Shown piece by piece: positions 36,238 through 57,860 of a stretch of 64,000 bases of DNA. A program made the position numbers and the translations under genes. Numbering within the stretch: the stretch's first letter is position 1; each line of letters opens with the position of its first letter. The DNA comes from Sphingomonas naphthae (GTDB taxonomy: Bacteria > Pseudomonadota > Alphaproteobacteria > Sphingomonadales > Sphingomonadaceae): NCBI RefSeq assembly GCF_028607085.1, contig NZ_CP117413.1, forward strand, positions 62,001 through 126,000, in the 5' to 3' direction. The notes under the pieces are model-generated. The model was not told the origin of the DNA. It was given only the letters and a program-made list of their open reading frames with translations, and ran no database searches.

Positions 36238-36789
36238 TCAGTAGCTGCCCGCCAACGCAAGCCGCACGTCCGCCGCGATTGTGTAGACGACTTCGCGCTG
36301 CGCGCCCCGATTGTGGTGGTCGACGCGATACCCCTGATAATGACGATGCAGCAATCCAGCGCGCACAAGATCGGATACAGCACGGCTAACGTTCGTCCGA
36401 CCGGATCGCAGGATGCGCGCTTCGATTTCCTCGTCCTGCTGCTGAGTCAAATCGCCCGCATTCTCCGAGCCGTCCGCCTTTGCCATTAGTTCCAACCGGA
36501 CCGCTGCAATCATGGCCGTACGGCGACAGTCCCGGTTGGCCAGCGGCGCCAGTGCTTGGCAAAGCCAATCACGAACCGGAATCTGGTCGGCATCGCTTCG
36601 AACATAGGGTCCGAGATTGCCATCCTCCCCTGCGGCCTTGGCGATCAGGTTGAGGATGAGCAGAACATACCGCGGACGCTTCGACACCTGCGATACGCGG
36701 TTGACCAGATCCGGCAGCGCGACGGTCGGCAGCGACGCAGGCTGGGGTGCTTGTTGGATATGGTCAAACAGATCAGCTTGGTGGAACAT
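36238..36789 (-). CDS. hypothetical protein with a C-terminal winged-helix-like region
   Basis: 183 residues, not assigned to a family. The middle and C-terminal parts (LILNLIAKAAGEDGNLGPYV, then SGRTNVSRAVSDLVRAGLLH RHYQGYRVDHH as separate stretches) look like a small winged-helix domain with a beta-wing. The N-terminus is low in structure (QQAPQPASLPTVALP). The start is 65 bp from a perfect 19-bp inverted repeat, so autoregulation is plausible. It reads away from the GHKL-ATPase/helicase pair and could be its transcriptional control gene. Confidence 0.65.
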   Translation of the reverse strand: MFHQADLFDHIQQAPQPASLPTVALPDLVNRVSQVSKRPRYVLLILNLIAKAAGEDGNLGPYVRSDADQIPVRDWLCQALAPLANRDCRRTAMIAAVRLELMAKADGSENAGDLTQQQDEEIEARILRSGRTNVSRAVSDLVRAGLLHRHYQGYRVDHHNRGAQREVVYTIAADVRLALAGSY

Positions 36790-36853: not shown

Positions 36854-36896
36854 TCACCAGTGTCACTTTACCACGCGGGTAAAGTGACACTGGTGA
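36854..36896. repeat. perfect 19-bp inverted repeat between divergent genes
   Basis: The left arm at 36854-36872 and right arm at 36878-36896 are exact reverse complements (arm core CACCAGTGTCACTTTACC) around a 5-bp spacer. There is no T-run, and it lies between two divergently read genes, so it is better read as an operator or recombination-related site than as a terminator. Confidence 0.75.
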
Positions 36897-37027
36897 CGCA
36901 GCGACTATCGATCGTGATGAACATCAACAAACGACTTGAGTCCCACGTACTCCATTGGCACCCTCCGCATCGGGGGTAATGATTGGATGAGAGGTTTTAA
37001 GAGCAGCAGCGAGGTCATCGCTGATTC

Positions 37028-40000
37028 ATGAAGTCGGACAACCCAATCGAGCAGCGTTACGAAGCCGACTTGCTCGGCAACATCCAGCAGGCACTCGCGG
37101 GTCTCCAGGGCTTCGAGGTCATGGCGCTCGAACTCATCCAAAACGCCGACGACGCGGGCGCCGCCGAGATGCGGTTCGATGTCAGGCGCGGCGGCCTCCA
37201 CGTCTGGAACAGCGCGAAATTCAGTAGCTGCGGGCTGTCGGAGCACGTCTGCCCCATGATCGAGACGGACGGCAGACCGTGTAATTTTCACGCGATCTCG
37301 AAGATGGGTAGCCGCAACAAGATCAGTGTCGGCTCGCAGATCGGACGCTTCGGCATCGGATTCGTTTCCGTCTACCAGATCACCGACGGCCCGACAGTCC
37401 GCTCGCTGGACCTTGAGATGCGCCTCGACCCGCTCCGTGGCCGCAGCCCCGCGCGAAAGGTAGCACCAGTCGTAGGCACGGAGTTCGACCTGCCATGGGC
37501 GGATCGGCCATCGCCAACGCGGGCCGGACTTCGCGCCTCTCCGACGCCGGCCGACGTCGTGGATATCATGGTCGAGCGCCTGCGCTTCGCGCTCGAGGGT
37601 GGGCTGATCTTCCTTCGCAACCTTACGCACGTCGAGCTCTTGATCGAAGGCGCCCTCGACCAGGCCATCACGATCCGCCGGAGAGACAACCATTTGGTGA
37701 TCCGTCGGGAGCCCGATGGCCGGGAGACCCAGTGGCGCATCATCACAGCCGATGCGCAAGGATTGGTTGACGAGCGTGACCTCCGGGGGCGCTTCGCGAT
37801 GCTGTCGGAACTAGACCGCGACACCAAGGTCAGCATCGCGATTCCGCTCTCGGACGACCGGGTCGATGGCCTCGTCTACGCCTTCCTCCCGACCGAGCAG
37901 CCGACGCGATTGCCCTTCCACGTCAACGCCGACTTCTTTCCTCGGCCGGACCGCCGATCGATCGTGCTCGGCGGAGAGCAGCATGACCGGCACTGGAACG
38001 AGGCGATGCTCCAGACTGCCGCCACGGCCGTGGCCGAGGATTTCGGGGAACTCACCGGATTGCTCGGCGCGCGTCGGCTCTGGGCGCTAATAGGGGCGGC
38101 GCACGCAATCCGCGAGGATCAGGCCTTCGGTTGTTTCTGGGCGGCGTTCTCTGAAGCCGCGGCCCTCCACGAATGCGCGTGGACGGTCGGAGAACAATGG
38201 GCGTCGATCGCCTCGACCCTGCTCGCACCTTCCGTGCTTGGCGCGAGCGAGCTCATCGCGCTCGAGGCCGTCGGCATCGGTATCATGCACCCTGACCTGA
38301 GGAGCAGCTGGTCCGCCTTGCAGGCGCTGGGCTCGAAGTCGCTTATGCTTTCCTCAGTCGTGGCGGGGCTCGAGGCCTACGCGGCGGCTGGGTCGGACTG
38401 GGATGCCGATCACCGGCAGGACCTGTGGAGCGCCGTCGGCAAGATGCTCGCCGCACTGCCGAAACCTTTGGCGATGCAGTCGCTGCAGACCAGACTGAAG
38501 GCCGTTCCATTTCTCTCAGACGATCGCGGTCAGCCCGCCAGCGGTTCAAGGCTCAGGATCCTGCCCCAGGGCGTTGATCGTGCGAGGATCGGCACATTGG
38601 CGCCCGGCGTGGCGATCGTCGACCAGCGGGTTCTGAGCGTTCCGCTGGTTGCCGCCCTCGTCCCAACGCTCGATCTCGCCGAAGTGGCGCGAGCTCTGGC
38701 GTCCGTGATCGCGACGCAGGACGACGCGGCGCGGATCATCGGCGAGACGGACGACGAAGTACGCGACTTCTATGCGACCCTTGTGGCACTGCCGCGCAGG
38801 CCGACGGACACCGTGGCGCTGGCCGCGCTTACACAGGTCCCGATCCTTCGCACGCATGAGACGTTCGCCGCGCCGGCCCGGGCGCTGCTGCCCGGCGGAT
38901 TCGTCGATCCCGTCGGCCACCTGTCGGTGGTTGAGGCGGCGCTGATGGGCCCGGCGATGCGCGAGTTCGCCGAAACCGCGCTCGAGGTGCGCGTGCTGTC
39001 CTTCGGCGAATTCATACGCCGCCATCTCAGCGACCTCGTCGCAGCCGACCCGACCCGCGACCAGTATCGCGCACTGATGCGCGAGATTGCTGGTCATTGG
39101 CACGAGCTCGCGTCCGCTGGCGCGCTCGACCTTCTTCGGCGAGCGGCCTTCATCCGCACGCGAGACGGCGGGTTCGCCGAACCGGGTGACTGCTATTTCA
39201 GGACCGCGGAACTCGAGACCCTGCTAGGCGAGGACCAGTCACGCTGGGTGGAAGACGACTGGATACCCCGCGATAGTTTGCCAGTGCTTCAGGACCTTTT
39301 CGAGACGCATCTCGGCATGCCTCGTCGCGCATCGATCAATCATGTCGTCGCCCGGATGGACCATCTGGTTTCCTTCGATCTGTCGGAACGGACGTCGCGC
39401 GCGGTCAATAGCGTCGCACGACACCTCATCGATCGAATGAGGACGCTGTCCCAGGCGGACCGGATCAGTCTGCAGCGGCTGCGCACGCTCGCCTGGATAC
39501 CTGCCCTGCTCGATGGAGAGCCCACCGGAACTTGGCATCTGCCGGGCGCGGTGCACAGACCCTTCCAGGCGGCGGGCTTCGCGTCGCAGGCGCGGGTCGC
39601 GGATCTACCCGTTTTTCGTCGAACCGCCGCTGGGCAGGCGCTGCCCGATTTCCTGACATTGATCGGCATGCCGGATCTGCCGCCGCTCGACGTGGTGGTG
39701 GCCCATCTCGAGCATTGCATGGCGACGGGGCGGCAGGTGTCTGACGTCACCTATCAGATCCTGAGCACCGGCCTCGACCGTCCCGAAGCAGCTGCGATCG
39801 AGCGGCTGCGCGGCAGGCCGTTCATCTGGGCGCCTGCACTCAAGACGTTCCTAGATGCCGATCACGTCTTTTGGGAGGCTCCGCCGTTCCGCGCGCACTG
39901 GCATCCCGCATCGACATTGATGATGCAACGCGCCGCACTTTATCGTGAACTGGACGTCGTCGACGTGCCGGAGGTGCGGCACTACGCCTTGCTTGCCTGC

Positions 40001-41884
40001 GAACTCGCCCAACGGGCCGAACGCTCGGCAGCCGACCTCGCCGTCCATCAGGCCTGCCTCGCGTATCTCGCGAACGCCCTGGACGCTGGCGACGTGGGGG
40101 CGGACGACGCCATCGCTGAGCTGCACGACACGTCCTCGCTGATCAGCCTTGAAGGGGACCCTGTCGATCCGGCCGACGCTATCTGGTGCGACGCCGACTG
40201 GCTCGCCGCGCCGTTCGCCGGCGCGCTCGACCATGCTCTCGTGGCGACGCCGCCATGCCGGCCAGCGACTGCAGCCCGGCTGTTCCGAGCGCTCCGCTCT
40301 GATCGCCTGTCGCGCATCGCTCGGCTCGTGCTGGGGGCTGAGCCCGACCGAACGCCGTGCAAGGCAGCGGACGGATTGCTTGCTGAACGTGGCGATCTGC
40401 TGCTCTGGCTGACGGGCGATGCGAAAACGAGAGTCCGTCTTTTCGCCGAACTGGCGCAACTGACAGTCCAGACCAGCTCATCGCTCCAGGTCTTGGCCGA
40501 ACTGCCAGAATCGACGCCGCCCGCGCGGTCCGCACCATCCGTTGCGCCCGCTTTCTACGAAGCCGCGACCGCGACGCTACACGTCGCGGTGGGCCAACAG
40601 GCCGAACTGGACTGGAGCTCGGCTTTCCGTGCGCTCTTCTCCCACTTGGACATGCTCGCGACGGAAGCCGACGCACGCCATTTGCCGATCACCGCGCTGA
40701 TGATCATGACCTCTCCGAGCCGCGCGAGCGCCGAGCATGTGCTGCGCACCGCCGGGTTCGCACCGCCTGCCGACCACAATCTCGATGGGTTGGAAGGCAC
40801 TCCCGGATTTGACGCATTCGAGGATGTCCTGTCTCCAGACGAGATTGATGCCAATGGCGAGGCGGCTGACGGCGACGACGATGCGGTGACCGAGGAAGAG
40901 CAGGACGCCAGCTCCAACGAAACTGAGCGGAACGAAGGCGCAACCCACGACGATGCGGATCAGGAGCAACCTGCGCAGGGAGATGACTGGGACGACGATG
41001 AGCCGTTCCGTTCGAAGAAGGCGACAGGTGACTTCGGCAAGGGTTCGGAGCGGAGCACATCTGATCCATCGGCTGTCCAGTCGGGGATTGGCCAACCGGG
41101 CTGGACCGGTGGCGGCGGGGGTGGCTCAGGAACGGGCGGCGGTGCTGGCGGCGGCCGAGCGCCGCACGCTGGCCTAGGAACGCAATCGAGTGGTGGCGTC
41201 AGTCCGGGTGGAGCGTCGACGCAGGCCGGTGGCGAGCCACGCGAGCGGCAGACGCGGCGCAGCCGCCTGCTCGCCTACGTTGCAACGAGTGCGCATGCCG
41301 CGTCGCTGGAACAGTCGACTCCATCGGAGCGCGAGCGGGTCGAGCTCGCGCAGGTTGATGTCGCGGCGATCGAGGCGGTCCTTCGCTACGAGCGCGCCAA
41401 GGGGCGCGAGCCGGAGGAGCAGGCGCATAACAACCCGGGCTTCGACATCCGGTCGATGTCGGCGGGGGGTGTCGTCGCACGGCTGATCGAGGTTAAGGGG
41501 CTAACCAGCGACTGGACCGAGCGCGGCGTGCGGCTCTCGAGCGTCCAGTTCGCTATGGCGCGCGAGCATCCCGAAGCCTTCTGGATCTACGTCGTCGAGA
41601 ACGCACGCGACCCGGATCGCCAGGTGGTGCACGCGATCGCAAATCCGTTTGCCAAGGTCACCGAGTACTGGTTCGACCACGGCTGGCGCGACGTCCGGGA
41701 GGAGTCGGCGAGCGCTCGTGAGTTGCGCCTTCGGGCCGGAGAGCGCATCAGGCATAGCCACTACGGAATGGGCGTGATCGAGCGGGTCGAACTTCGCACC
41801 GTTCCACAATACGTCACGATTCGCTTCCGGATCGATGGGCTCAAGAGGCTGCCGTTCAATTCCCTTCTGACCTTTCCGACCTGA
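37028..41884 (+). CDS. large GHKL/Hsp90-like (sacsin-type) ATPase with DUF3883 nuclease-like and tudor-like C-terminal domains
   Basis: 1618 residues. The N-terminal 120 or so contain the Bergerat ATP-binding fold: ELIQNADDAGA (35-45, with the Mg-binding Asn), GGLHVWNSAKF (55-65) and GRFGIGFVSVYQITD (106-120), as in sacsin and Hsp90-like repeats. A long helical middle follows without a recognised family. From about residue 1265 there is a very acidic linker, then a Gly-rich spacer near 1358-1378. Residues about 1465-1530 resemble DUF3883, with FDI and ARLIEVKG matching a PD-(D/E)XK D...EXK core. The end (GERIRHSHYGMGVIERVEL to LTFPT, about 1570-1618) resembles the UvrD/CarD-type tudor fold. 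The next gene begins 2 bp after the stop, so the two form a unit. Candidate nuclease/ATPase of a defence system; function inferred. Confidence 0.85.
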   Translation: MKSDNPIEQRYEADLLGNIQQALAGLQGFEVMALELIQNADDAGAAEMRFDVRRGGLHVWNSAKFSSCGLSEHVCPMIETDGRPCNFHAISKMGSRNKISVGSQIGRFGIGFVSVYQITDGPTVRSLDLEMRLDPLRGRSPARKVAPVVGTEFDLPWADRPSPTRAGLRASPTPADVVDIMVERLRFALEGGLIFLRNLTHVELLIEGALDQAITIRRRDNHLVIRREPDGRETQWRIITADAQGLVDERDLRGRFAMLSELDRDTKVSIAIPLSDDRVDGLVYAFLPTEQPTRLPFHVNADFFPRPDRRSIVLGGEQHDRHWNEAMLQTAATAVAEDFGELTGLLGARRLWALIGAAHAIREDQAFGCFWAAFSEAAALHECAWTVGEQWASIASTLLAPSVLGASELIALEAVGIGIMHPDLRSSWSALQALGSKSLMLSSVVAGLEAYAAAGSDWDADHRQDLWSAVGKMLAALPKPLAMQSLQTRLKAVPFLSDDRGQPASGSRLRILPQGVDRARIGTLAPGVAIVDQRVLSVPLVAALVPTLDLAEVARALASVIATQDDAARIIGETDDEVRDFYATLVALPRRPTDTVALAALTQVPILRTHETFAAPARALLPGGFVDPVGHLSVVEAALMGPAMREFAETALEVRVLSFGEFIRRHLSDLVAADPTRDQYRALMREIAGHWHELASAGALDLLRRAAFIRTRDGGFAEPGDCYFRTAELETLLGEDQSRWVEDDWIPRDSLPVLQDLFETHLGMPRRASINHVVARMDHLVSFDLSERTSRAVNSVARHLIDRMRTLSQADRISLQRLRTLAWIPALLDGEPTGTWHLPGAVHRPFQAAGFASQARVADLPVFRRTAAGQALPDFLTLIGMPDLPPLDVVVAHLEHCMATGRQVSDVTYQILSTGLDRPEAAAIERLRGRPFIWAPALKTFLDADHVFWEAPPFRAHWHPASTLMMQRAALYRELDVVDVPEVRHYALLACELAQRAERSAADLAVHQACLAYLANALDAGDVGADDAIAELHDTSSLISLEGDPVDPADAIWCDADWLAAPFAGALDHALVATPPCRPATAARLFRALRSDRLSRIARLVLGAEPDRTPCKAADGLLAERGDLLLWLTGDAKTRVRLFAELAQLTVQTSSSLQVLAELPESTPPARSAPSVAPAFYEAATATLHVAVGQQAELDWSSAFRALFSHLDMLATEADARHLPITALMIMTSPSRASAEHVLRTAGFAPPADHNLDGLEGTPGFDAFEDVLSPDEIDANGEAADGDDDAVTEEEQDASSNETERNEGATHDDADQEQPAQGDDWDDDEPFRSKKATGDFGKGSERSTSDPSAVQSGIGQPGWTGGGGGGSGTGGGAGGGRAPHAGLGTQSSGGVSPGGASTQAGGEPRERQTRRSRLLAYVATSAHAASLEQSTPSERERVELAQVDVAAIEAVLRYERAKGREPEEQAHNNPGFDIRSMSAGGVVARLIEVKGLTSDWTERGVRLSSVQFAMAREHPEAFWIYVVENARDPDRQVVHAIANPFAKVTEYWFDHGWRDVREESASARELRLRAGERIRHSHYGMGVIERVELRTVPQYVTIRFRIDGLKRLPFNSLLTFPT

Positions 41885-41886
41885 AC

Positions 41887-43590
41887 ATGGCGATCTGCTA
41901 TCCTCCCGCGGAAACCGCCGAGAGCACTTCCGCCGCCGAGCTGAAGCTGTTGCGGGCTTGCGAGAGCAAGCTCGGAGACGACTGGCTCGTGTTCCATTCC
42001 GTAGCCTGGATATCGCGGGCATCGGGCTCGGGCGCGTCCGACGGGGAACTCGATATGCTACTTTGCCATCCCCGGCACGGCATTCTCACCATCGAGGTCA
42101 AGGGCGGCGGGATCGGACTCGACTATCGGACCGGCGACTGGACATCGACTGACCGGAACGGTCGCGTGCACCCCATCAAGAACCCATTTCGTCAGGCCAC
42201 CAAGGCCAAGTACGGCGTCCTGGAGAAGCTCAAGGAAAGCCCGGCCTGGACGCGGCTGGGAATCGCTCGCTTCGTCATTGGACACGCGGTCTTCCTGCCA
42301 GATGTTGGCGACGCTCGGCGACTGGCGGGACCCGATGCTCCGGCCGAAATAACCGGCGACGCTGGCGACCTCGGGCGGCTTGACGAATGGCTGACCCGGG
42401 TGATGGCGTTCTGGGAGGGCGAGGACAGCCGCCGGCACGATCAGATCGGTCCTGGCGGGGTCGCGGTGGTGCGCCAGATCTTTGCACGTTCCGTGGCGGC
42501 AAGGCCGTTGCTGTCGACGCGCATCGGCGAGGAAGAGGTCCGCCGCCTCGAACTAACCCGCCGGCAGATGGCCGTCCTCGATCTGCTGTCGCGACACCGC
42601 CGCGTGGTGATCAGCGGCGGCGCGGGAACGGGCAAGACTCTAATCGCGCGCGAAAAGGCGGAGCGACTCGCGCGTGAAGGGATGCGCACACTCCTGGTCT
42701 GCTACAACCGGCCGCTCGCCGATCATGTGCGCGAGCAGGTGGCGGGGATCGACCTACTGGACGTCGCGTCGTTCCATCAGCTCTGCGATCGCTGGGTAAA
42801 ACGCGCCCACGCCAAGCTTGGTCGTGACCTTATGGCTGAAACCCGAAGGGACTTTCCGGGCGCCGACCACTTCGATGTCATTCTGCCTATGGCCCTGGCC
42901 CTCGCGGTTGATGCGTTCGGTCCGAGATACGACGCTATCGTCGTTGACGAGGCGCAGGACTTCGCGCTCGAGTTCTGGATGCCAATCGAGATGCTGCTGA
43001 CGGGCGGGGAGGACGCGCCGCTCTACATCTTCATCGACGAGAACCAGGACCTCTACCGGCGCGCGACCGAACTGCCAATCAAGACGCCGCCCGCGACGCT
43101 CGACCGGAACTGCCGCAACACGGGGCACATCCACGCCGCGGCTTACCGCTACTACCGCGGCGACGCCGTTGAGGCTCCGGAGATCGAAGGCACGCGGGTG
43201 GAGACGCTTATCGCCGGCGACCTCGCGAAGCAGGCACGGGCGATCGCTGCCACCGTGACCAGGCTCGTAACGGAGGAGGGAGTAGCGCCTCACGACATCG
43301 CCGTGCTGCTGTGCGCGGCCGGCGCCAAGGCGGAAGCCGAGGCGGCGCTGGCGGCTAACGCCATCCCGCGATCGGCTTCTTGGGGCAGGCTGGAGAGCTA
43401 CGGGCAATGTGTGATCACCGTTGACACGGTGGCGCGCTTCAAGGGCTTGGAGCGCGCGGTCGTGATCCTGTGGATCGACGGCTGTGATCCTGCGCTCCAG
43501 CGCGAGACCTTTTACGTCGGCCTGTCGCGAGCCAAGTCCGTTCTCTATCTCTGTGGGACGCAGGACGCCTGCCGGACGGCGATGAAGTGA
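41887..43590 (+). CDS. NERD-nuclease / SF1 (UvrD-like) helicase fusion
   Basis: 567 residues. Residues about 15-130 form a NERD domain with the PD-(D/E)XK-like set Glu18, Asp56 (DGELDM) and Glu70-x-Lys72 (TIEVKGG). From about 235 comes an SF1 motor: Walker A ISGGAGTGKTLI (about 241-252), YNRPLADHVREQ, Walker B VVDEAQDFALEF (about 352), DENQDLY, LDRNCRNT, TVARFKGLERAVVIL and GLSRAK. It lacks the long 2B insertion of UvrD/Rep. It starts 2 bp after the GHKL-ATPase stop. Likely DNA-directed helicase-nuclease partner of that protein. Confidence 0.88.
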   Translation: MAICYPPAETAESTSAAELKLLRACESKLGDDWLVFHSVAWISRASGSGASDGELDMLLCHPRHGILTIEVKGGGIGLDYRTGDWTSTDRNGRVHPIKNPFRQATKAKYGVLEKLKESPAWTRLGIARFVIGHAVFLPDVGDARRLAGPDAPAEITGDAGDLGRLDEWLTRVMAFWEGEDSRRHDQIGPGGVAVVRQIFARSVAARPLLSTRIGEEEVRRLELTRRQMAVLDLLSRHRRVVISGGAGTGKTLIAREKAERLAREGMRTLLVCYNRPLADHVREQVAGIDLLDVASFHQLCDRWVKRAHAKLGRDLMAETRRDFPGADHFDVILPMALALAVDAFGPRYDAIVVDEAQDFALEFWMPIEMLLTGGEDAPLYIFIDENQDLYRRATELPIKTPPATLDRNCRNTGHIHAAAYRYYRGDAVEAPEIEGTRVETLIAGDLAKQARAIAATVTRLVTEEGVAPHDIAVLLCAAGAKAEAEAALAANAIPRSASWGRLESYGQCVITVDTVARFKGLERAVVILWIDGCDPALQRETFYVGLSRAKSVLYLCGTQDACRTAMK

Positions 43591-43799
43591 GCGCTGATAC
43601 GCCGGCTGCGATCACCGGAAAAGGACGCTGATGAACCAGAAATGAGAGGCGGATGAGCGGCCAAATTTTACTGCAGCCACTCCAGCCCAGCTGTGGGTGC
43701 CGTCGACAAGAAGCGGCCGTCGTGCGGAATGCCGTTCGTCGGCCAGGTGAGGAAACACAACGGCTAGAGCAGGATAGAATTTGGCTTCGATAGCCTAGA

Positions 43800-44849
43800 C
43801 TATCTCTTAGCCAGAACTTTCGCCTCCTCGATGCCAGCAGCCGAACGATGCTCCCGTTCCGCTGATCGCTGCCGCGATCGCCGTGGCATGCCGAAGACGT
43901 CCGCCTTGCGTAACAGAATGCGGACGTCATCGCGGATGATCACATCCTGCCGTTTCAGATCGATGGTGATCGACGTCATCGTCTCGGGAAACGGCTGGCG
44001 CCTTCCCGTGAGCGAGAAGAGCGTGGTGCGACGGCGCAGTGGGTCGAGCCGGACTATGTGCTCCTGCTCGATATCGCCCGATAGGTACAGCGCGCACCCG
44101 ACGTAGCACCTCAGCACTCCCTCGAGGTCGGCGACGCGTTCGCTGTCGATGACAAGGCGCCCATCCTCGTCGATCGCACCGAAACCCGCATCAGATGCAC
44201 GCTCCATTGCGGTGACCGTGCGTTGCGGATCGGCAAGCGCGTGGAGATATTCGAGCGCCTGCTCTCCGAATTGCTGCTGGCTACCGAAGTGCTTGCGGAT
44301 GTCGCGCACCATAGCCGGGCTCGGCCGTGCGGCCGTGCGTGACCGATTGAGGATGTTGAGCGCCTGATGCACAAGCAGGTCGTCGCGCCGTTCGGCGGCC
44401 GCTCGCGCGAACAGCTCCGCATCTATGTCCGTGTCCTGGCTGGCCTCGATTGCGCGGGTGAACGACACACGCTCGGCGGCAAGAAGATCATGAACATCTG
44501 ACGGCACCTCGTCGGCATGGGGCAGCCGACCCCGTTCGAGCGCGAAGCCTGCTATTGCATCGATGGCGGTGGCGATACGATCGGCTAGTTGTGGTCTCGC
44601 GACCGCAGTTTTGGCAGGACGATCGGCGCGGTAGGCGCTGGTGGACGCTCGGCGTCCGCGCCGTCGCTCCAGGAGGAAGTCTTGCTCTTCCTCGGGCGAG
44701 CGGAACAGAGCGAAGATGCCTGGCGCCAAGGCGACAGGCTCGACCCCCGTCGCCTGCGTCAACATCGCCTTCAGCTCGGCCTGTTGGAAATACTTCTGGA
44801 AGGTGCCGCGTGCCGTTAGGTAGGGGAAAGGTCCCAGATCAATTTCGCT
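43800..44849 (-). pseudogene. truncated DNA-phosphorothioation-associated methyltransferase-like gene
   Basis: The minus-strand frame is open from 44849 to 43800, but the first ATG is at 44765. Upstream of that, LTARGTFQKYFQQAELKAML continues in frame, and further on come LAPGIFALFRSPEEEQDFLL and LRCYVGCALYLSGDIEQEHI. From memory, GTFQKY, the PGIFYVFRDE-like motif and the later YxGCA motif in this order characterise the Dnd-associated putative methyltransferase family (TIGR04096). The methyltransferase core that should precede GTFQKY is missing (a stop at 44852-44850) and the end after LLRKADVFG is unrelated, so both ends are truncated. No dnd genes are nearby. Moderate confidence in the family, high in its being broken. 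Confidence 0.6.
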
Positions 44850-45567
44850 TCAACGACACTTCAGCCGGTCAGCTGCTCGAAGAATCCGCCAGAATCTGTC
44901 TACTGTTCGCAAGGGCCCACAGGCGCTGGAGACTGCGTGATAGACTCCTACATCGGTTTGCGGCGCCTGTGCTCACGCTCGATAACGTTTGCCCCAACGA
45001 GCCTTCCTGTGAAATGCCGCTCGCGCTTGCCAGCCCCTCAATGCGTCGTTGCCTTATCGCAATCTGCGCCGCGATGCTCGATGCAGACTGTGACCCAACG
45101 GTGCGAAACGAGGACGAGCCGGTTGTCGACGTATGGGCGCGGATGGTCGATAGCATCGCACTCCAACAGTTCATCCAAGATCGTCAGGCGTGCTCGCCGA
45201 CGTTGAAAAGAACAGTGGAAGCAGCGTGCCATCGGAACGAAAAAGTCGAGCGGATGTCCGCGTTACGGAGCGCCTCGACGGCCTACAAAACTCTCTTCCG
45301 TGACGCGGCCGGAAATGCGTTCTCTTCGCGCCATTAAGTACCCGCGAGCCTACGGATGGCAGGCGCATTTGGCCTCTAGCTGGCCGCACGCTTTTTAGCG
45401 GCAAGTGTCCATTAACTTAGGAGGTTGGCGGCGCGCACCTGAATGCGGCGCTTCTGCTGGATTTCATCAATTCCATTCCGTCCCGCGATTGGGCAACATG
45501 CGCCCATTCCCGCCGCTCAATGCTCCTAGGGTAGCGCCTGAAAGCAGACGTTACGCAGCTTGGCGCC
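44850..45567. other. recombination-scar region without a confident gene
   Basis: A plus-strand frame running to a stop at 45337 contains protein-like sequence from about 44850 (ESARICLLFARAHRRWRLRD, then CLIAICAAMLDADCD and VVDVWARMVDSIALQQFIQD). Its 5' half overlaps the methyltransferase remnant, where it is clearly a shadow. It may be the 3' remnant of a second gene joined at about 44850. From 45338 to 45567 I see nothing. Confidence 0.3.
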
Positions 45568-46044
45568 TCAACCCGTTCCTCCGGAGGCATCCGGCGCGGT
45601 GCCGGGGGCGGTATCCTGAGCCTTTCCGGTCGGCGCCCCATCCTGCGCTGCACTCATCGCCGTCAGATAGTCGACGATAGCCGGAATGTCCTTGTCCGCC
45701 ACGGGAGCCTTGTAGACATCCTTCATCTTGGTGACCGTTGCCTTCCACTGGTCCGCTGAAAGCACTGGCTGGGTCATCGCCATGCTGGCGGAATGGCAAG
45801 ACGTGCAATTCGCATTGATGACATCGGCATGAGGGCCATCGGGATATTGCTGCTCATCGATAGGAAGATCGACCGTATCCGAGGTCATGGTAAAGCCGTT
45901 CACGGAAATGCTGCTGGGTGTAGGCCCTGTGGATTGGGGTTCGGGCAGCGGGGTGTAGCTGCCGGGAGGGCCCACCATCATGAGGGTGAAGACGGTCACG
46001 CCGAGCAGTCCGACGGCCAGCATGCCTGGGGTTGGCGCTTTCAT
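45568..46044 (-). CDS. c-type cytochrome, probable sulfite dehydrogenase electron-transfer subunit
   Basis: 158 residues with an N-terminal signal anchor (MLAVGLLGVTVFTLMMVG) and one haem motif, NCTSCHSASMAM, at about residues 79-90. MTQPVLSADQWKATVTKMKD provides the distal Met region. It starts 11 bp after the sulfite dehydrogenase gene and is the natural acceptor of its electrons, as SorB is for SorA. The C-terminal tail is Ala/Pro-rich and probably disordered. Confidence 0.85.
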   Translation of the reverse strand: MKAPTPGMLAVGLLGVTVFTLMMVGPPGSYTPLPEPQSTGPTPSSISVNGFTMTSDTVDLPIDEQQYPDGPHADVINANCTSCHSASMAMTQPVLSADQWKATVTKMKDVYKAPVADKDIPAIVDYLTAMSAAQDGAPTGKAQDTAPGTAPDASGGTG

Positions 46045-46055
46045 GCCAAAGCTCC

Positions 46056-47306
46056 TTATGCCGTCACGATGGTAGTGGTTTCGATATTGCCGCGCATGAA
46101 ACCGCCAGGGTTCCAGATCGGCGCCATCGGCTGTGCGACGCCTGCCGTATTCCAGCAGCGCGACATAAGCGACGTCTTTCCGGGGCCGGGCAAGGGAACC
46201 TGGGCGTCCCACCGCCGGAAACTGTACTTCCCGTGGTCCGGTCCGAGCTTGGTTGCAAACCAGTGGCGACCGCCGTCGGTGGACACATCGACCCGTGCCA
46301 CGCCGCAGTCGCCGCCCATGGCGATGCCGCCAAGCGGGATCGAGGCCTCGTGCGCGATCCGCTGACCTTCGCCCAGACTGGTGACCCACGAACGCGGAAT
46401 CATGCGGTTGATCGGAACGGTCGGGAAGTCCTTGGCGCCAGGCTTCACATTGGCGCCGGGCGTCGCCGGGATCTTGTAGGCCTTGGCCATCCAGTATTCG
46501 TCGTCAGGCCCGGGCAGGACCTCGATGTCGTTGAGCATCTTGACCCAGTAGGTGGAGTACCAGCCCGGCACGATCAGCCGGATCGGGAAGCCGTTGAGGA
46601 GCGGCAGCTGCGTGCCGTTCATGCCGAAGGCGATCATCACTTCGCCGTCGCGGGCATGATCGATGTCGAGCGCCTTCTCGAAGTCCGGGGCACCGGCGAC
46701 CACAGGTTGATCGAGAGCGCCGAAACGAACCTGGACGGCCCCCGCCTTCACCCCGGCCAGATCGAGCACATCGCGCAGGCGCACGCCGAGCCACTTCGCA
46801 TTGCCCATCGCCCCGTTGCCCCACTGCGCGCCGGGGACGCGGGGCTGGAACAGCCCTCGCGAATTGCCCGAGCACTGGTTCACGGCGGCCATCTCAACCC
46901 TTGGCAGGCGCATCAGTTGTTCCAGATTGATCGCGATCGGCTTGTTGACGTGACCGCGGATAGTGAGCCTGAAAGCATCGACGTCGATCGAGGTCGGGAT
47001 GTCCGCCCAGTGCCAGCGCACGAAGAACTGATCATTGGGGGTGAACACGTCGCGGTCAAAGACAGCCATCGGTGTTTCGAGCAAGGGCGGATGGATGCGC
47101 TGGAGGATCATGCTGCCCTTGCCGGGAAATGCGCTCGTCATCGGGCGCTGCGCATTGCCGCCGGGGAGATGCAGGTCGGTCAGCCCCTGCGTGATGCCCT
47201 GCGCCAGCGCAGGCGCAGCGGCGATGGCTGCACCGCCGAGCGCGGCATTCTGCAGGAAACGGCGGCGGCTTGTTTCGGCCGCGAGCTCGGCATCCAGTCT
47301 GTCCAT
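46056..47306 (-). CDS. molybdopterin-dependent sulfite dehydrogenase (SorA/SoxC-like)
   Basis: 416 residues. A twin-arginine-type leader SRRRFLQNAALGGAAIAAAP points to Tat export. The molybdenum-binding domain has the ligand Cys in VNQCSGNSRGLFQPRVPGAQ, then WLGVRLRDVL and GYSTYWVK-like text (WYSTYWVKMLNDIEV); the dimerisation domain follows from about residue 290. It oxidises sulfite to sulfate in the periplasm, passing electrons to the adjacent cytochrome c. Confidence 0.92.
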   Translation of the reverse strand: MDRLDAELAAETSRRRFLQNAALGGAAIAAAPALAQGITQGLTDLHLPGGNAQRPMTSAFPGKGSMILQRIHPPLLETPMAVFDRDVFTPNDQFFVRWHWADIPTSIDVDAFRLTIRGHVNKPIAINLEQLMRLPRVEMAAVNQCSGNSRGLFQPRVPGAQWGNGAMGNAKWLGVRLRDVLDLAGVKAGAVQVRFGALDQPVVAGAPDFEKALDIDHARDGEVMIAFGMNGTQLPLLNGFPIRLIVPGWYSTYWVKMLNDIEVLPGPDDEYWMAKAYKIPATPGANVKPGAKDFPTVPINRMIPRSWVTSLGEGQRIAHEASIPLGGIAMGGDCGVARVDVSTDGGRHWFATKLGPDHGKYSFRRWDAQVPLPGPGKTSLMSRCWNTAGVAQPMAPIWNPGGFMRGNIETTTIVTA

Positions 47307-47391
47307 GGTCGTATCCTCTCGGGCAAAATGGTGGCGGGTGCTGCTGTGAGAAGCAAGCGATCAGAACACCGTTACTGATCGCAATGCCCGA

Positions 47392-48546
47392 TCAGTTTGT
47401 GGCGGCGATACAGGGCGATACGAAGAGATTGCCGCGCCATCCGCCGATCAAGGTCTTTGCGGCGACCACCATCCACATCAGGGCAAGCGCCAGGGTCAGA
47501 ACGGTGCCCACGATACCGAAGAAGGCAAGGTGCAGGGTCGTGCCAAGGCGAAAGGTTGCCACGGTGAAGACGCCTAGCGGGAAGGTATAGCCCCACCAGC
47601 CAAGGTTGAACGGGATACCTGCCCGCCAGTAGCGCCAGGTGATGAGCGAGGCGAGCGCCAGCCACCAGAGGCCAAAGCCCCACAGCAACAGACCGGCGAT
47701 TGTGCCGATGCCTTGGGCGACAGTGCCGACATCGGCCAGCCCATGCCCAGCCATGATCGCGGGGGCGTCGCCGCCCAGAACCAGCATGCCCAGCGCGCCG
47801 GTACCGATCGGGCCAAGCGCCAGCCAGCTCGATGCGGCCATGCCCTCATGCGGCAGCTTGTGGAGCGCCATGCGCAGGATCAACAGTGCAAGAATGCTGA
47901 AGGCGACCGGGACCGAATAGGCCCACAGGATGTAGGACGTGACGAGCATCCCGAACTGCGCGCTGTCTTGCGCCAGATGCGGCGCCAGCAGTCCTCCGCT
48001 GGCAGCCGTCACTTCGGCCGCCACGACCGGCAGCAGCCACACCGCCGTCATGCCGTCGAGCCAATGCTGGTGGCGCGTGAACATGAAGTAGGGGATCAGC
48101 ACACCGCAGCTTACCGCCATGGCGGCGTCGATCCACCACAAGACCGTGGCGACCGGTACGATGCCCTCGCCGAAGCGCGCGATACCGAATGCGATGCACC
48201 CGTTGATGATCGTGGCGAGGCCCATGGGGATCGTGCCGATGAACATCGATACGGTGTTGTGGCCGAAGATGCGCCGCGCTTCGTGGCCGAACAGGATCCA
48301 GCGCGCGGTATAGAGCGCGGTGAAAAGGCTGAAGAGCCCGATGTTGAAGAACCACAGCACCTCTCCCACAGGCTTGAGCGAAGCGCCGATGCCCGGCACC
48401 TGCGGGAGGGCCAGCGCAAGAATGCCCGTGCCCATGGTGGCGGCAAACCAGTTGGGCGTGAACTGGCGGATCATCTCGCGCGGGTGATCGAGCCGGCTGA
48501 GTGGGCGCATCCCTTCGAGGATGGGCTTGATATCCGTGGTCATCAT
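47392..48546 (-). CDS. TDT/SLAC1-family (TehA/Ssu1-like) sulfite or anion exporter
   Basis: 384 residues with ten predicted helices, including TPNWFAATMGTGILALAL near the start and the duplicated helical pattern of the tellurite-resistance/dicarboxylate (TDT) family. Beside a sulfite dehydrogenase the most likely substrate is sulfite, though tellurite or dicarboxylates are known for relatives. The start overlaps the lysR stop by 4 bp. Confidence 0.88.
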   Translation of the reverse strand: MMTTDIKPILEGMRPLSRLDHPREMIRQFTPNWFAATMGTGILALALPQVPGIGASLKPVGEVLWFFNIGLFSLFTALYTARWILFGHEARRIFGHNTVSMFIGTIPMGLATIINGCIAFGIARFGEGIVPVATVLWWIDAAMAVSCGVLIPYFMFTRHQHWLDGMTAVWLLPVVAAEVTAASGGLLAPHLAQDSAQFGMLVTSYILWAYSVPVAFSILALLILRMALHKLPHEGMAASSWLALGPIGTGALGMLVLGGDAPAIMAGHGLADVGTVAQGIGTIAGLLLWGFGLWWLALASLITWRYWRAGIPFNLGWWGYTFPLGVFTVATFRLGTTLHLAFFGIVGTVLTLALALMWMVVAAKTLIGGWRGNLFVSPCIAATN

Positions 48547-49412
48547 CCAAACTCCTTGACCAGTTCGGTCAGCGCGTCGGCTGCCCGGGTGCGATACCGC
48601 TCCTTGTGGCGTAACGCTTCAAATGGACGGGCAGGCATTGCGAGCGGCAATTCATGAAGGTGCCCTGCAGCAAGTGCGCGGCGCACCACCAGTTCGGAAA
48701 GGACCGCGACACCGGCGCCGGCCTCGACAGCGGACCGTACGGCTTCGTTGGACGGCAGCGTCATGGCGATGTTCAGGTCTGCCGGATCGATACCGCGATC
48801 ACGCAGGACATCCTCGAAACTCGACCGTGTGCCGGACCCGTGCTCCCGCACGATCCAGTTGGCGCCGCGCACCCAGTCCTCATCGATGGTATCGACAGCC
48901 TGCCCCGAGATCAGCAGCATCCGGTCCTCGCCGACTTTCCAGTGGGCGAGTGCGGGCTGGTCGATCGAACCTTCGACAAAGCCCAGTTCCGCGCGGCCAT
49001 CCAGTACCTGTGCCGCCGCACCCTCGCTGTTGTCGATTGCGAGTTCGACGCGGATCGCGGGGTGGCGGCTGTGAAACTGAGCCAAGCGCGAGGGCAGCCA
49101 GTAGCTGGCGATGGTCTGGCTGGCGACAAGGCGCAGGGTTCCGCGCTTCAGGCCGCCGTACTCGGCCAGGGTAAGCTCCGCCGTCGCGGCGCGGCCAAGA
49201 ACGGCGCGTGCCTCATCGAGGAACATGCGACCCGCCTCGGTCAGTTCGATGCCGCGGCCCACGCGGTTGAAGAGCGGCACGTCATGCCTGGCCTCCAGCG
49301 TAGCGATCGCCGCGCTGGCAGCGGACTGGGTCACGCCCAGTGCCTCGGCGGCCCGCGTCATATGTTCGCGTTCGGCAACGCCCACGAAGATGCGTAATTG
49401 TTCAAGGGTCAT
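48543..49412 (-). CDS. LysR-family transcriptional regulator
   Basis: 289 residues with the N-terminal HTH (MTLEQLRIFVGVAEREHMTR to LGVTQSAASAAIATLEARH) and a periplasmic-binding-protein-like sensor domain (RGTLRLVASQTIASYWLPSR). It is coupled to the exporter gene downstream and likely regulates sulfite export and oxidation in response to a sulfur compound. The family resembles CysB/CbbR-type regulators only in general terms. Confidence 0.92.
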   Translation of the reverse strand: MTLEQLRIFVGVAEREHMTRAAEALGVTQSAASAAIATLEARHDVPLFNRVGRGIELTEAGRMFLDEARAVLGRAATAELTLAEYGGLKRGTLRLVASQTIASYWLPSRLAQFHSRHPAIRVELAIDNSEGAAAQVLDGRAELGFVEGSIDQPALAHWKVGEDRMLLISGQAVDTIDEDWVRGANWIVREHGSGTRSSFEDVLRDRGIDPADLNIAMTLPSNEAVRSAVEAGAGVAVLSELVVRRALAAGHLHELPLAMPARPFEALRHKERYRTRAADALTELVKEFG

Positions 49413-49495
49413 GGTGATCTCCTGTCACCATTGATACCGCAGCCCGATCAATCACTCCAACGCATTGATTATATCATTCCAATCTCGTTCTAAGA

Positions 49496-50092
49496 TCATT
49501 TGATGAGTGCGTTCCTGGCGGCGAGCAGCGCGCTTTCGATCCGTTGGCTGACATCAGGACTGGTGCAGACATTGGCCGGACTAGGGTGGGGCATGGTGAT
49601 GACCGACACATCGGGCCGTGCCTCTTCGATAAGTGCTTCCGCCCCCGCCGCCACCCGGCCCGCCAAGATGCAGACCCGCACGCCCGGCAGTTTCGCAAGC
49701 AGGTCGGGAAGCGTTGCGAGACCTTCGGCAATCTCCGTTCGGCGCAGCGCGCGATTGCGGGCACCGGGGGCGTGGACGATCCAGGGCACGCAATTCCACT
49801 GAACGATGTCCATTCGCGCGATGCCCGCCGCTTCCAGATAACGGCGAAGGTTACGAGCAGTGCCAGATGGGTTGTCCCGCGACACGAAGCGAGTGCGATC
49901 AGGCCCGGGGCCCGGCGTCTCAAGAAGCAGGAGAAGGCGCGCATCTATGCCGCCATCGAACGGGTCGAAATGCGGCACCGTGTGTCCTGCGCCAACGAGC
50001 CCCTCACGCCATATCTCCAGCGGCGCAATGTGCGGCGCACCAAGTGCCGCTCTGCGTTCGGCGATCAACGCGGGATCATCCAGCCAGGCCAT
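49496..50092 (-). CDS. uracil-DNA-glycosylase-superfamily protein
   Basis: 198 residues with LLLLETPGPGPDRTRFVSRD near residue 60 and MPHPSPANV near residue 170, which correspond to the GEAPG-like and HPS motifs of the UDG fold. The active-site Asp of family 4 enzymes is not evident, so the substrate could be a different base or none. It stands alone. Base-excision repair is a plausible role. Confidence 0.82.
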   Translation of the reverse strand: MAWLDDPALIAERRAALGAPHIAPLEIWREGLVGAGHTVPHFDPFDGGIDARLLLLLETPGPGPDRTRFVSRDNPSGTARNLRRYLEAAGIARMDIVQWNCVPWIVHAPGARNRALRRTEIAEGLATLPDLLAKLPGVRVCILAGRVAAGAEALIEEARPDVSVITMPHPSPANVCTSPDVSQRIESALLAARNALIK

Positions 50093-50274
50093 TGATCGTC
50101 AAATCCTATCGAAACTACAAAAATCATCGGTTGGATCGATGGCGAGTGTTGCGCCATGTGTTCGACAGGCAACGCCTGCGTTGGCGTACCTGCTCCTCGG
50201 CAGCTCGCATTTTTTCCGTTGCATGCTGCGAGGATGACACCTGCGACCGCTGTAGGCGTTATCGCCGGAACGCC

Positions 50275-50658
50275 ATGACGAAAGGGCTTCACTTGAAACT
50301 GCTATGGGGATTGGCCGGCCTTTGCGCGGCGACAGCATCGGCGGCCGCACTGGCGGCATCGTCCGATGGCTTTGCAAGCCAGATGGCAGCCTCCATGGAG
50401 CGGATGCACCATGCGATGATGATTGCGCCATCGGGCGACCCGGACCGCGACTTCGCGGCGATGATGATCCCCCATCACCAGGGCGCGATCGAGATGGCGG
50501 AAGCGGAGCTCAGATACGGAAAAGACGAACGCCTGCGCCGCCTGGCTCAGGGCATCATCGTCGAGCAGCGGCAGGAGATCGCCGTCATGCAGGACATTCT
50601 CGCGAAAAAGACAGGCCCCGCTGCCAGCGCGCACCATCACATGGGAGACGACAAATGA
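50275..50658 (+). CDS. DUF305-family periplasmic His/Met-rich protein
   Basis: 127 residues with a signal peptide (LLWGLAGLCAATASAAALAA) and the DUF305 pattern: MMIPHHQGAIEMAEAELRYG and a His-rich tail HHHMGDDK. DUF305 proteins are often linked to copper or metal handling. It starts an operon with a beta-propeller protein and a DedA protein by 4-bp overlaps. The ATG at 50275 is chosen to give the signal peptide. Confidence 0.88.
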   Translation: MTKGLHLKLLWGLAGLCAATASAAALAASSDGFASQMAASMERMHHAMMIAPSGDPDRDFAAMMIPHHQGAIEMAEAELRYGKDERLRRLAQGIIVEQRQEIAVMQDILAKKTGPAASAHHHMGDDK

Positions 50659-52091: not shown

Positions 52092-52660
52092 CGCTTGAAG
52101 CGATCCTTAGCCAGTACGGCCTTGCGGCTCTGTTCCTTGGTGCGGGCATCGAAGGCGAGACGGTAGTCGTGCTGGGCGGCGTGATGGTCCACCGTGGCCT
52201 GATCGCGTACCCGGCGGCCATCGCGGCGGCAGCACTCGGGTCCTGTATCGCGGACCAGATCTTCTTTGCCCTCGGCCGCCGGTTCCGCGATCATCGCTAT
52301 GTTCGGCGCGTCCAGCAGAAGGCCGCGTTCCGCCGCGCCATCGATGTGTTCGAGCAGCGGCCAGTGCTGTTCGTGTTCGGCTTCCGCTTTCTGTATGGCC
52401 TGCGCACTGTCAGCCCCATCGCGATCGGCACGACCGCGCTTCCTGCCTCCCGCTTCATGGCTATCAACGCATTGGCGGCCGTGGTCTGGGCGACAGTCTT
52501 CGTGACCCTGGGTTACCTGTTCGGTGAGGGCATCGAGGCTGCTTTTGGCCGCGTCCGCGATGTGGGCCATGTTCTGCTGCCCGTACTCGCGGTGCTGCTC
52601 CTCGTCGGCCTCGCCGCACACTTCCGGCACCGCAGGCGCGAGGTCACAGCAAAGGACTGA
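52088..52660 (+). CDS. DedA-family membrane protein
   Basis: 190 residues from a GTG start overlapping the propeller stop, with re-entrant-type helices and the family features GETVVVLGGVMVHRGL and RFLYGLRTVSPIAIGTTALP. DedA/SNARE-associated proteins influence lipid carrier recycling and membrane potential. It closes the three-gene DUF305 operon. Confidence 0.88.
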   Translation: MTLEAILSQYGLAALFLGAGIEGETVVVLGGVMVHRGLIAYPAAIAAAALGSCIADQIFFALGRRFRDHRYVRRVQQKAAFRRAIDVFEQRPVLFVFGFRFLYGLRTVSPIAIGTTALPASRFMAINALAAVVWATVFVTLGYLFGEGIEAAFGRVRDVGHVLLPVLAVLLLVGLAAHFRHRRREVTAKD

Positions 52661-52727
52661 CGAGGCGAGCTAGATTTTCGCAGAAGCGGGAAACACGCGG
52701 GCGATCACGCCATTCCTCCAGCAAAAG

Positions 52728-54039: not shown

Positions 54040-54105
54040 CGCGCGATGCTACCTGTCTCTGCTGCGTCGTGTCGATGCGCCCGTCAGATCACGCCCCCTT
54101 CAACC

Positions 54106-54966: not shown

Positions 54967-55319
54967 TGTTCGAGCTGTTTGTAGATGACCACCTTCGTCG
55001 ACAGCAGGGCGGCATGCCGCTGGCAGAACAGTTCAAGATCGGCGCGGTGGCCGATCAGTTCGACGCACATGGTCAGATAGGGATTGCTCGTTTCCGCGCC
55101 CTGATCGAGCACCGGCCCGTGGTTGCTGAAGCCGTAATGGGTATAATGGGCTACGGCGTTCATCAGACCGGCAGCCTTGGCCTGGACGACAAGCTCACGA
55201 TAGAGCGGGCGTGCTGACCACAGCTTCCATGCCTTGCGCGGCTCTGCCGTATCACGCGGCGCCATGTAGATACGCAGCATGCCGATCTCGCTGGACGTGA
55301 GAATAGCCGTGTCAGTCAT
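54918..55319 (-). CDS. DUF190 PII-like protein
   Basis: 133 residues from ATG 55319, which overlaps the clcF stop by 8 bp. The core ([20 protein letters not shown], then [10 protein letters not shown]) matches the DUF190 family, PII-like proteins usually encoded beside fluoride exporters (CrcB/Fluc or CLC-F). It probably modulates the antiporter. Confidence 0.82.
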
Positions 55320-57843: not shown

Positions 57844-57860
57844 TTGTCACAATCCATCTA

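What the first reader, a model, noticed from the sequence alone, without database searches (positions are those of the whole stretch)
37028..43590. Candidate two-gene defence system: GHKL/Hsp90-like ATPase-DUF3883 protein plus NERD-SF1 helicase
Seen: a 1618-residue protein with the sacsin/Hsp90 ATP-binding motifs (ELIQNADDAGA, GRFGIGFVSVYQITD) and a C-terminal PD-(D/E)XK-like DUF3883 core, followed after 2 bp by a NERD domain fused to an SF1 helicase. Known: sacsin-like ATPases, DUF3883 and NERD-helicase proteins are recurrent in anti-phage islands, and Nhi of staphylococci is a single-protein nuclease-helicase. Inference: this specific pairing is a nuclease-motor system distinct from those I can name.
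Basis: partly seen in the sequence, partly recalled or inferred. Interest (0 to 1): 0.9.

Follow-up and report, generated by a model that had tools for sequence, protein, structure and literature searches.

The report
Two-gene TmtA–helicase defence cassette
A probable plasmid of a sphingomonad bacterium carries a conserved pair of genes, one a known kind of anti-virus protein (TmtA of Tiamat) and the other a DNA-unwinding enzyme with its own cutting domain, that probably work together to destroy foreign DNA; the first gene belongs to a known family, while I found no description of the fixed pairing.

Summary
37028-41884 encodes a 1618-aa sacsin/Hsp90-type ATPase with a C-terminal NOV_C (DUF3883) nuclease; 2 bp later 41887-43590 encodes a 567-aa NERD-SF1 helicase. 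The first gene is not unnamed: it matches PADLOC's TmtA model nearly end to end; TmtA is, from recall, the single protein of Tiamat. New here: (1) Conserved pairing. All 6 intact NERD-helicases of the close clade follow a TmtA at 1-4 bp (truncated TmtA in one); a seventh locus is a deletion remnant of both. Four of the six were found through TmtA. 0 of 11 distant NERD-helicase loci examined have TmtA; one TmtA of the same PADLOC subfamily (Microvirga) is unpaired. (2) TmtA's tail (~1567-1610) is a UvrD/PcrA-type Tudor domain, normally a helicase's partner-binding tail, which the partner helicase lacks. The pair sits in a ~7.9-kb cargo segment of a probable sphingomonad plasmid. Most likely: a nuclease-motor anti-invader unit, a two-gene Tiamat variant. 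No function was tested; TmtA's middle ~1300 residues stayed unresolved.

The parts
37028..41884 (+). tmtA-like gene, 1618 aa (protein 1): N-terminal sacsin/Hsp90-type ATPase, long middle region, acidic/Gly-rich linker, PD-(D/E)XK-type (NOV_C) nuclease, Tudor-like C-terminus
   Evidence: ORF; PADLOC TmtA PDLC03969 1278.7 bits over residues 1-1614
37082..37432 (+). SACS (Hsp90-like, GHKL) ATPase domain core, residues 19-135; E35, L36, N39, D42, A43, N61, F65, K98, G106, G109, G111, F112 invariant
   Evidence: Pfam SACS 9e-16; invariant in 6 of 6 aligned rows; sacsin crystal structures are the best solved relatives; counterparts of ATP-binding residues named for sacsin in PMC9880540 (passages), matched by my reading of the motifs
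41363..41614 (+). NOV_C / DUF3883 PD-(D/E)XK-type nuclease core, residues 1446-1529; D1473, E1488, K1490 invariant in 6 of 6 rows
   Evidence: Pfam 3.7e-14; invariance; helix-strand pattern and weak Foldseek matches to Holliday junction resolvases, E 0.02-0.2, prob 0.90-0.99
41726..41857 (+). UvrD/PcrA-type Tudor domain, residues about 1567-1610; H1576, Y1579, K1606, L1608 in the positions that I assign to PcrA H681, W684, K712, L714
   Evidence: Pfam PcrA_UvrD_tudor weak here (E 0.083), over its cut-off in one homologue (L005, 26.8 bits); PDB profile hits; Foldseek ranks 1-7; alignment; PcrA residues from PMC5397179 passages
41887..43590 (+). NERD-SF1 helicase gene, 567 aa (protein 2)
   Evidence: ORF; 50-60% identical to five downstream partners of other TmtA genes
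41932..42240 (+). NERD nuclease domain, residues 16-118; E54, D56, E70, K72 invariant in 6 of 6 rows
   Evidence: Pfam 7.5e-10; invariance
42544..43566 (+). SF1 (UvrD/Schlafen-group-3-like) helicase core; Walker A GGAGTGKT 244-251, DEAQD 354-358, YVGLSRAK 543-550; no Tudor match of its own
   Evidence: Pfam; invariance; PDB profile hits to SLFN11/SLFN5 and, weaker, RecD
36854..36896 (.). perfect 19-bp inverted repeat (5-bp loop), shared with two other plasmids, at the left edge of the cargo segment
   Evidence: homology of those plasmids to the window ends at 36902/36903
36903..44820 (.). cargo segment that holds the pair, bounded by where homology to other sphingomonad plasmids stops (left) and resumes (right); the two sides are judged against different plasmids
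43800..44765 (-). convergent ORF, 321 aa, matching only positions 148-407 of 478 of a DNA phosphorothioation-associated methyltransferase model, below its cut-off (112.9 of 150 bits): probable truncated remnant; not thought to belong to the pair

Best explanation
A two-gene variant of Tiamat: TmtA (Hsp90-type ATP-clamp protein with a PD-(D/E)XK-type nuclease and a UvrD-type Tudor tail) and a co-encoded NERD-SF1 helicase act as one anti-phage or anti-plasmid nuclease-motor unit. Proposed working, step by step: (a) both proteins are made from one message (the 1-4 bp gaps in six loci are shown; translational coupling is inferred from them); (b) they act in a common complex or pathway (inferred from conserved pairing and joint decay in one locus); (c) the SF1 motor loads on exposed single strands or ends of invader DNA and moves (inferred from family); (d) ATP-driven closure of the TmtA clamp switches on its nuclease, with NERD as a second cutter, so invader DNA (perhaps cell DNA too) is cut (inferred by analogy with VcSduA, Gabija and Hachiman); (e) the Tudor tail, a domain that UvrD/PcrA use to dock on RNA polymerase or UvrB, brings TmtA to its partner helicase or to a transcription or repair complex (inferred).
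For: TmtA model match. Pairing: TmtA upstream of the NERD-helicase in window, L002, L003, L004, L005 (TmtA truncated) and L017; remnant of both in L018. The six other genomes each hold exactly one NERD-helicase match at 1e-10, the paired one or, in G361, the remnant; the window's genome likewise has one match to its own protein 2. Paired NERD-helicases form one clade, support 98/99. ATPase, nuclease and helicase motif residues invariant. Defence neighbours: BREX genes in L018, ZacC in L017, Dnd-associated methyltransferase fragment in the window, cytosine-methyltransferase-like and Vsr-like ORFs in L004 (read by eye, not family-tested). Precedents: VcSduA, a GHKL ATPase plus PD-(D/E)XK nuclease in one chain, where E27A and K557A both abolish defence (PMC12137116 passages); HamAB nuclease-helicase (PMC12278908 abstract); Gabija (PMC12407980 abstract).
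Against: No functional test. TmtA alone is a system elsewhere (recalled), and the Microvirga TmtA of the same PADLOC subfamily has no NERD-helicase match within 10 kb, though an annotated UvrD-helicase lies about 1.6 kb away on the other strand; so the helicase may be an optional helper. The sample is small (7 loci, all Alphaproteobacteria), and four of the six intact pairs were found through TmtA, in a search that reaches close relatives only. No complex was modelled. The held pieces of the host RpoB lack the exact B. subtilis helicase-interaction motif, which weakens an RNA-polymerase tether. No defence gene was identified by a family search beside L002, L003 or L005 (one L003 neighbour tested, no match; the rest not tested).
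Confidence: 0.6

Rival explanations
1. Ordinary Tiamat plus an independent neighbour: TmtA is the whole system and the NERD-helicase is a separate defence or repair gene that happens to sit in the same operon in this lineage.
For: TmtA-like proteins occur without a NERD-helicase match in Microvirga, Deinococcus and Calothrix; NERD-helicases of about 33-36% identity sit in another setting, next to DrmA/DrmB-type genes.
Against: Paired helicases form a clade of their own; the six intact pairs have gaps of 1-4 bp; no second helicase copy in the six other pair-bearing genomes; the remnant in L018 keeps pieces of both genes.
Confidence: 0.25
2. A DNA repair or plasmid-maintenance unit: a UvrD-like motor with a Tudor-bearing partner helps incoming plasmid DNA be repaired or replicated in the recipient, rather than attacking foreign DNA.
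For: Lies on a probable conjugative-type plasmid; the Tudor is of the UvrD/PcrA kind; recipient UvrD is reported to take part in conversion of transferred plasmid DNA (PMC10085688, title and start of abstract in the listing).
Against: Rare: 2 of 196 genomes of the order sample, the window's own included; lies in a variable cargo segment; three of the six other loci lie on contigs of more than 1 Mb (L004, L005, L017), so not only on plasmids; two nuclease domains; decay in relatives (L005, L018); defence neighbours.
Confidence: 0.1
3. [quoted passage not shown]
For: Same two-part format of nuclease effector and helicase sensor (PMC12278908 abstract).
Against: No HamA or HamB match in the rows shown; the sensor is unknown; the closest one-chain analogue, VcSduA, protects at all tested phage doses in a way its authors read as sparing the cell (PMC12137116 passage).
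Confidence: 0.25

Closest known systems
Tiamat (TmtA; PADLOC PDLC03969)
   Same: Protein 1 is a near full-length match: sacsin/Hsp90 ATPase at the start, NOV_C/DUF3883 nuclease near the end.
   Different: Tiamat is defined as one gene (recalled; the paper that I recall as its source, Millman et al. 2022, is not held). Here a NERD-SF1 helicase is a conserved second gene, and TmtA ends in a UvrD-type Tudor for which the Deinococcus and Sulfuricurvum TmtA-like proteins show no match.
VcSduA (Shedu type I-D)
   Same: GHKL ATPase followed by a PD-(D/E)XK nuclease in one chain; both activities needed for defence (PMC12137116 passages).
   Different: Nuclease is DUF4263, not NOV_C; single gene; no helicase partner.
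Gabija (GajAB)
   Same: Nuclease protein plus SF1 helicase, two proteins in one system (abstracts).
   Different: GajA is of the OLD nuclease family (abstract; its TOPRIM nuclease is recalled); protein 1 has no GajA match and protein 2 only weak GajB matches, best 30.5 bits.
NERD-helicase next to DrmA/DrmB-type genes (DISARM/ARMADA-like operons; PADLOC RTasNERD-Hel, C3a187)
   Same: Protein 2's nearest relatives outside the pair, about 33-36% identity, same NERD-SF1 architecture.
   Different: There the partners are a UvrD-like helicase, DrmA- and DrmB-type proteins; no TmtA. Whether they are ARMADA was not tested.
Nhi of staphylococci
   Same: Nuclease-helicase protein.

Membership tests
Tiamat | TmtA protein (PADLOC model) | tested here: met
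   PDLC03969 E 0, 1278.7 bits, residues 1-1614, profile 1-1560 of 1563
Tiamat | Hsp90-like ATPase plus DUF3883/NOV_C in one chain | tested here: met
   SACS 19-135, NOV_C 1446-1529; invariant motif residues
Tiamat | single-gene system (definition recalled) | tested here: inconclusive
   a second gene is present in 6 of 6 loci of this clade (TmtA truncated in one) plus a remnant, but absent in Microvirga of the same subfamily; whether it is required is untested
Tiamat | anti-phage activity | not testable with these tools
   needs plaque assays
Gabija | GajA | tested here: not met
   no GajA among the 10 matches of protein 1 up to E 0.1
Gabija | GajB (UvrD-type helicase) | tested here: inconclusive
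   best GajB match to protein 2 30.5 bits, partial
Nhi | Nhi model match over the protein | tested here: not met
   22.2 bits over 58 residues
Shedu | DUF4263 (SduA) nuclease | tested here: not met
   C-terminal nuclease matches NOV_C; no DUF4263 or SduA among the matches of protein 1
Hachiman | HamA (DUF1837) and HamB | tested here: not met
   no HamA or HamB in the PADLOC rows (all 10 for protein 1; the best 25 of 31 for protein 2); no DUF1837 in Pfam
DISARM / ARMADA-like | DrmA and DrmB beside the NERD-helicase | tested here: not met
   no PADLOC match up to E 0.1 for the five other window ORFs tested around the pair; present beside a distant relative (L038)

The most novel reading that the evidence does not exclude
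A split-UvrD immune machine: the SF1 motor (with a NERD nuclease) sits on one chain and the UvrD/PcrA Tudor docking tail on its partner, an Hsp90-type clamp nuclease, so that the complex is steered to transcribing RNA polymerase or a UvrB-like factor and destroys actively transcribed or R-loop-bearing invader DNA. To my knowledge it would be the first transcription-coupled, chaperone-fold-gated bacterial nuclease-motor defence.
Probability: 0.15. Interest if true: 0.8.

Novelty: new variant of a known kind. Interest (0 to 1): 0.5.

Why it matters
Tiamat is catalogued, but no mechanism for it turned up in the listings and the passages that I saw. A conserved helicase partner and a UvrD-type docking tail give concrete handles on how a TmtA nuclease might be delivered to DNA, and make three direct tests possible: is the helicase required, does the Tudor bind the helicase or RNA polymerase, and does ATP binding switch the nuclease. 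TmtA also shares its nuclease domain with plant NO VEIN proteins (Pfam name; that NO VEIN is a plant protein is recalled): in one metagenome survey all 'Tiamat' calls of plant samples lay on plant genome sequences (PMC12409356 passages), so a mechanism may bear on a eukaryotic family too.

Tried and rejected
Considered and rejected: Nhi, Gabija, Shedu and Hachiman as the family. A viral home for the helicase: no relative confirmed in viral contigs; one unannotated phage record at 32.6%.

Led nowhere: AlphaFold2 of residues 1-1190 gave mean pLDDT 44.9 and is not used. A self-comparison of the middle region suggests a repeat of about 100 residues, about 663-782 against 890-995, hhalign 90.7%, the best of 91 window pairs; left as a hint. 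The C-terminal model is itself modest (mean pLDDT 58.3; no Foldseek match at E 0.001 or better). The exact B. subtilis RpoB helicase-interaction motif was not found in the held pieces of the host RpoB. A link between Tudor residues and pairing is not clean: the five-locus clade keeps H, aromatic, K and L/I, but the paired G194 lacks the H and unpaired Microvirga keeps some. The small gene 36238-36789 is found in 134 plasmid records and is taken as plasmid backbone, not a partner. A 14-base scan for the palindrome half-site in viral contigs gave 38 stretches, unused. A TmtA search of the phylum found the window's own genome alone (1 of 398) and one of the class of Rhizobium tubonense found that genome alone (1 of 172).

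Rows dropped before counting: G023, a 44-residue helicase match at 1.6e-4; G1408/L036, same coordinates and score as G194 and counted as the same genome; plasmid hits to protein 2 beyond the four fetched.
Full report
What is there. Window 37028-41884 (+) encodes a 1618-residue protein and 41887-43590 (+) a 567-residue protein; two bases lie between stop and start. Protein 1 has Pfam SACS at 19-135 (9e-16) and NOV_C at 1446-1529 (3.7e-14), with a weak PcrA_UvrD_tudor match at 1571-1608 (0.083). Protein 2 has NERD at 16-118 and UvrD-type helicase matches at 236-321 and 511-555.

Name. PADLOC's TmtA model PDLC03969 covers protein 1 almost entirely (1278.7 bits, residues 1-1614). That TmtA is the protein of the one-gene system Tiamat is recalled; the source paper is not held. 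Protein 2's best PADLOC models are RTasNERD-Hel (218.4 bits in all; best stretch residues 1-298) and C3a187 NERD+UvrD (89.2 bits, residues 16-558); Nhi scores 22.2 bits.

Conserved pairing. A TmtA query in genome contigs, which reaches close relatives only, gave four loci: Rhizobium tubonense L002, Agrobacterium cavarae L003, Sphingomonas kyeonggiensis L004, Xanthobacteraceae 501b L005. All four have a NERD-helicase of 58-60% identity directly downstream; in L005 only the C-terminal part of TmtA remains, behind ORFs that look like an istA/istB insertion (my reading; not family-tested). A TmtA query in 196 genomes of the order matched two: the window's own and G194, also paired (L017; TmtA 32%, helicase 50%). 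A helicase query in 385 genomes of the class gave four matches at 1e-30: the window's own; G361, where 51 N-terminal TmtA residues are followed, in another frame, by about the last 300 residues of the helicase, a deletion remnant of a pair (L018); and two distant ones without TmtA (L019, L020). The gap between the two genes is 2 bp in the window, 1 in L002, 2 in L003, 2 in L004, 3 in L005 and 4 in L017, there if the ATG is the start (coordinates). Each of the six other pair-bearing genomes (L002-L005, G194, G361) holds exactly one helicase match at 1e-10. Searched with protein 1, 11 unpaired NERD-helicase loci of about 26-36% identity (L009-L012, L019, L020, L038-L042) gave no TmtA match in the fetched flanks. 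Of the 11 plasmid records covering at least 80% of protein 2 I fetched four. A tree of 17 helicases puts the six paired ones on one side of a branch, support 98/99.

Exceptions and limits. The Microvirga plasmid TmtA (33% identical; PDLC03969 1283.9 bits) has no NERD-helicase match within 10 kb, though a gene annotated UvrD-helicase lies about 1.6 kb downstream on the other strand. More distant TmtA-like proteins of Deinococcus and Calothrix are likewise unpaired in the fetched flanks. In Sulfuricurvum a short TmtA-like protein of 1006 aa directly follows a lone NERD protein and precedes qatABCD, a hint that NERD and TmtA meet more than once. Pairs are rare: by TmtA, 2 of 196 genomes of the order, 1 of 398 of the phylum and 1 of 172 in another class sample; by a close helicase, 1 of 297 and 2 of 296 in two order samples; the centre genome is among the matches each time. 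Four of the six intact pairs were found through TmtA, so the helicase-to-TmtA direction rests on few independent finds.

Anatomy of TmtA. The residues described as ATP-binding in sacsin (PMC9880540, passages) correspond to E35, L36, N39, D42, A43, N61, F65, K98, G106, G109, G111 and F112, all invariant in 6 of 6 rows, Microvirga included. The correspondence is by my reading of the motifs; the printed sacsin alignment bears it out for the first and last motifs but not around N61 and F65, where it runs otherwise. In the nuclease, D1473, E1488 and K1490 are invariant. A model of the last 234 residues (mean pLDDT 58) has a helix-strand order fitting PD-(D/E)XK; Foldseek lists UvrD/PcrA Tudor domains first (ranks 1-7, E 0.003-0.008), then the like-folded domains of Mfd and CarD among Holliday junction resolvases (E from 0.02); none reaches E 0.001. 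A sequence profile of the same region independently finds UvrD/PcrA Tudors in the PDB (E 0.0015-0.01). Pfam's Tudor model passes its cut-off in L005 and stays below it in the window, L002, L003, L004 and L017; in Microvirga it is weaker still, E 0.24. In PcrA, H681, W684, K712 and L714 are needed to bind RNA polymerase (PMC5397179, passages). By my alignment with two UvrD pieces, the window, L002, L003, L004 and L005 keep H, an aromatic, K and L or I there; G194 lacks the H; Microvirga has L, F, R or K, and I. The partner helicase stops 17 residues after its last motif and has no Tudor match. In B. subtilis the Tudor binds RpoB and UvrB through a short motif (PMC8318588, passages); that exact motif is absent from the held pieces of the host RpoB. 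So the docking target is open: the helicase itself, RNA polymerase or another factor.

Anatomy of the helicase. NERD residues E54, D56, E70 and K72, Walker A, DE[AG]QD and the core of the last motif are invariant in 6 of 6. The best solved relatives by profile are the Schlafens SLFN11 and SLFN5, matched over the C-terminal hundred residues.

Setting. The window lies on a 131-kb contig with VirB1-3-like genes (539-1896, below NCBIfam cut-offs), a ParB-family gene (over the cut-off), and RepA- and RepM-like genes (below cut-offs) at 59229-62868, hence a probable conjugative-type plasmid. To the left, homology to plasmids of Sphingomonas paeninsulae and Sphingobium yanoikuyae stops at 36902/36903, just behind an inverted repeat (perfect in the window, 36854-36896) that those plasmids share, and each plasmid carries something else beyond it. 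To the right, 97.4% identity over 13.4 kb to S. yanoikuyae pTB1 starts at 44821. The pair therefore sits in a cargo segment of about 7.9 kb, together with a convergent ORF that matches part of a Dnd-associated methyltransferase model below its cut-off. Other loci lie near BREX genes (L018, the remnant) or ZacC (L017; of the Azaca system, recalled).

How it most likely works. Shown: two adjacent, nearly touching genes; conserved ATPase, helicase and two nuclease motif sets; a domain of UvrD type on the partner rather than on the helicase. Inferred: the SF1 motor engages invader DNA ends or single strands; ATP-driven clamp closure of TmtA licenses cutting; NERD adds a second cut; the Tudor recruits. 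Precedents are VcSduA (GHKL ATPase and PD-(D/E)XK both needed; PMC12137116 passages), HamAB (PMC12278908 abstract) and Gabija (PMC12407980 abstract). Whether cutting is selective or suicidal cannot be told from sequence.

Novelty. Searches for Tiamat, DUF3883, NERD, helicase, TmtA and Hsp90-like ATPase in the held papers showed no description of this pair in the listings; I looked at passages of ten papers and the abstracts of two more, not at whole texts. The library lacks most subscription papers, so this is weak evidence of absence. I file it as a new variant of a known kind.

Noticed in passing
window 36854-36896: Perfect 19-bp inverted repeat, shared (with small changes) with two other sphingomonad plasmids whose contents differ just beyond it: a possible conserved insertion or recombination point, beside a small gene (36238-36789) found in 134 plasmid records.
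   Followed up: partly
window 43800-44765: Probable truncated remnant of a DNA phosphorothioation-associated methyltransferase next to the pair; other Dnd genes were not searched for.
   Followed up: partly
L009, L011, L012, L038, L039, L040, L042 (8-10 kb around the NERD-helicase): Recurrent four-gene operon in 7 of the 11 unpaired loci: UvrD-like helicase, DrmA-type helicase, DrmB-type protein, NERD-SF1 helicase; PADLOC names tested only for L038, annotation or ORF sizes and order for the others.
   Followed up: partly
L025 8195-11901: Sulfuricurvum: stand-alone NERD protein with Top1-type zinc ribbon directly before a short TmtA-like protein (SACS plus NOV_C), then qatABCD.
   Followed up: partly
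L020 1382-16104: A 993-aa ORF that reads by eye like an Hsp90/HATPase-type protein (no PADLOC match at 1e-10) and a methyltransferase-like ORF lie opposite an operon with a NERD-helicase and a DrmA-type helicase.
   Followed up: no
L018 999-11117: BREX genes (PglZ, PglX, BrxC, BrxB) beside the deletion remnant of a TmtA-helicase pair.
   Followed up: yes
window 44821-58225: 13.4 kb at 97.4% identity to Sphingobium yanoikuyae plasmid pTB1, mostly metabolic, transport and stress genes by its annotation.
   Followed up: yes
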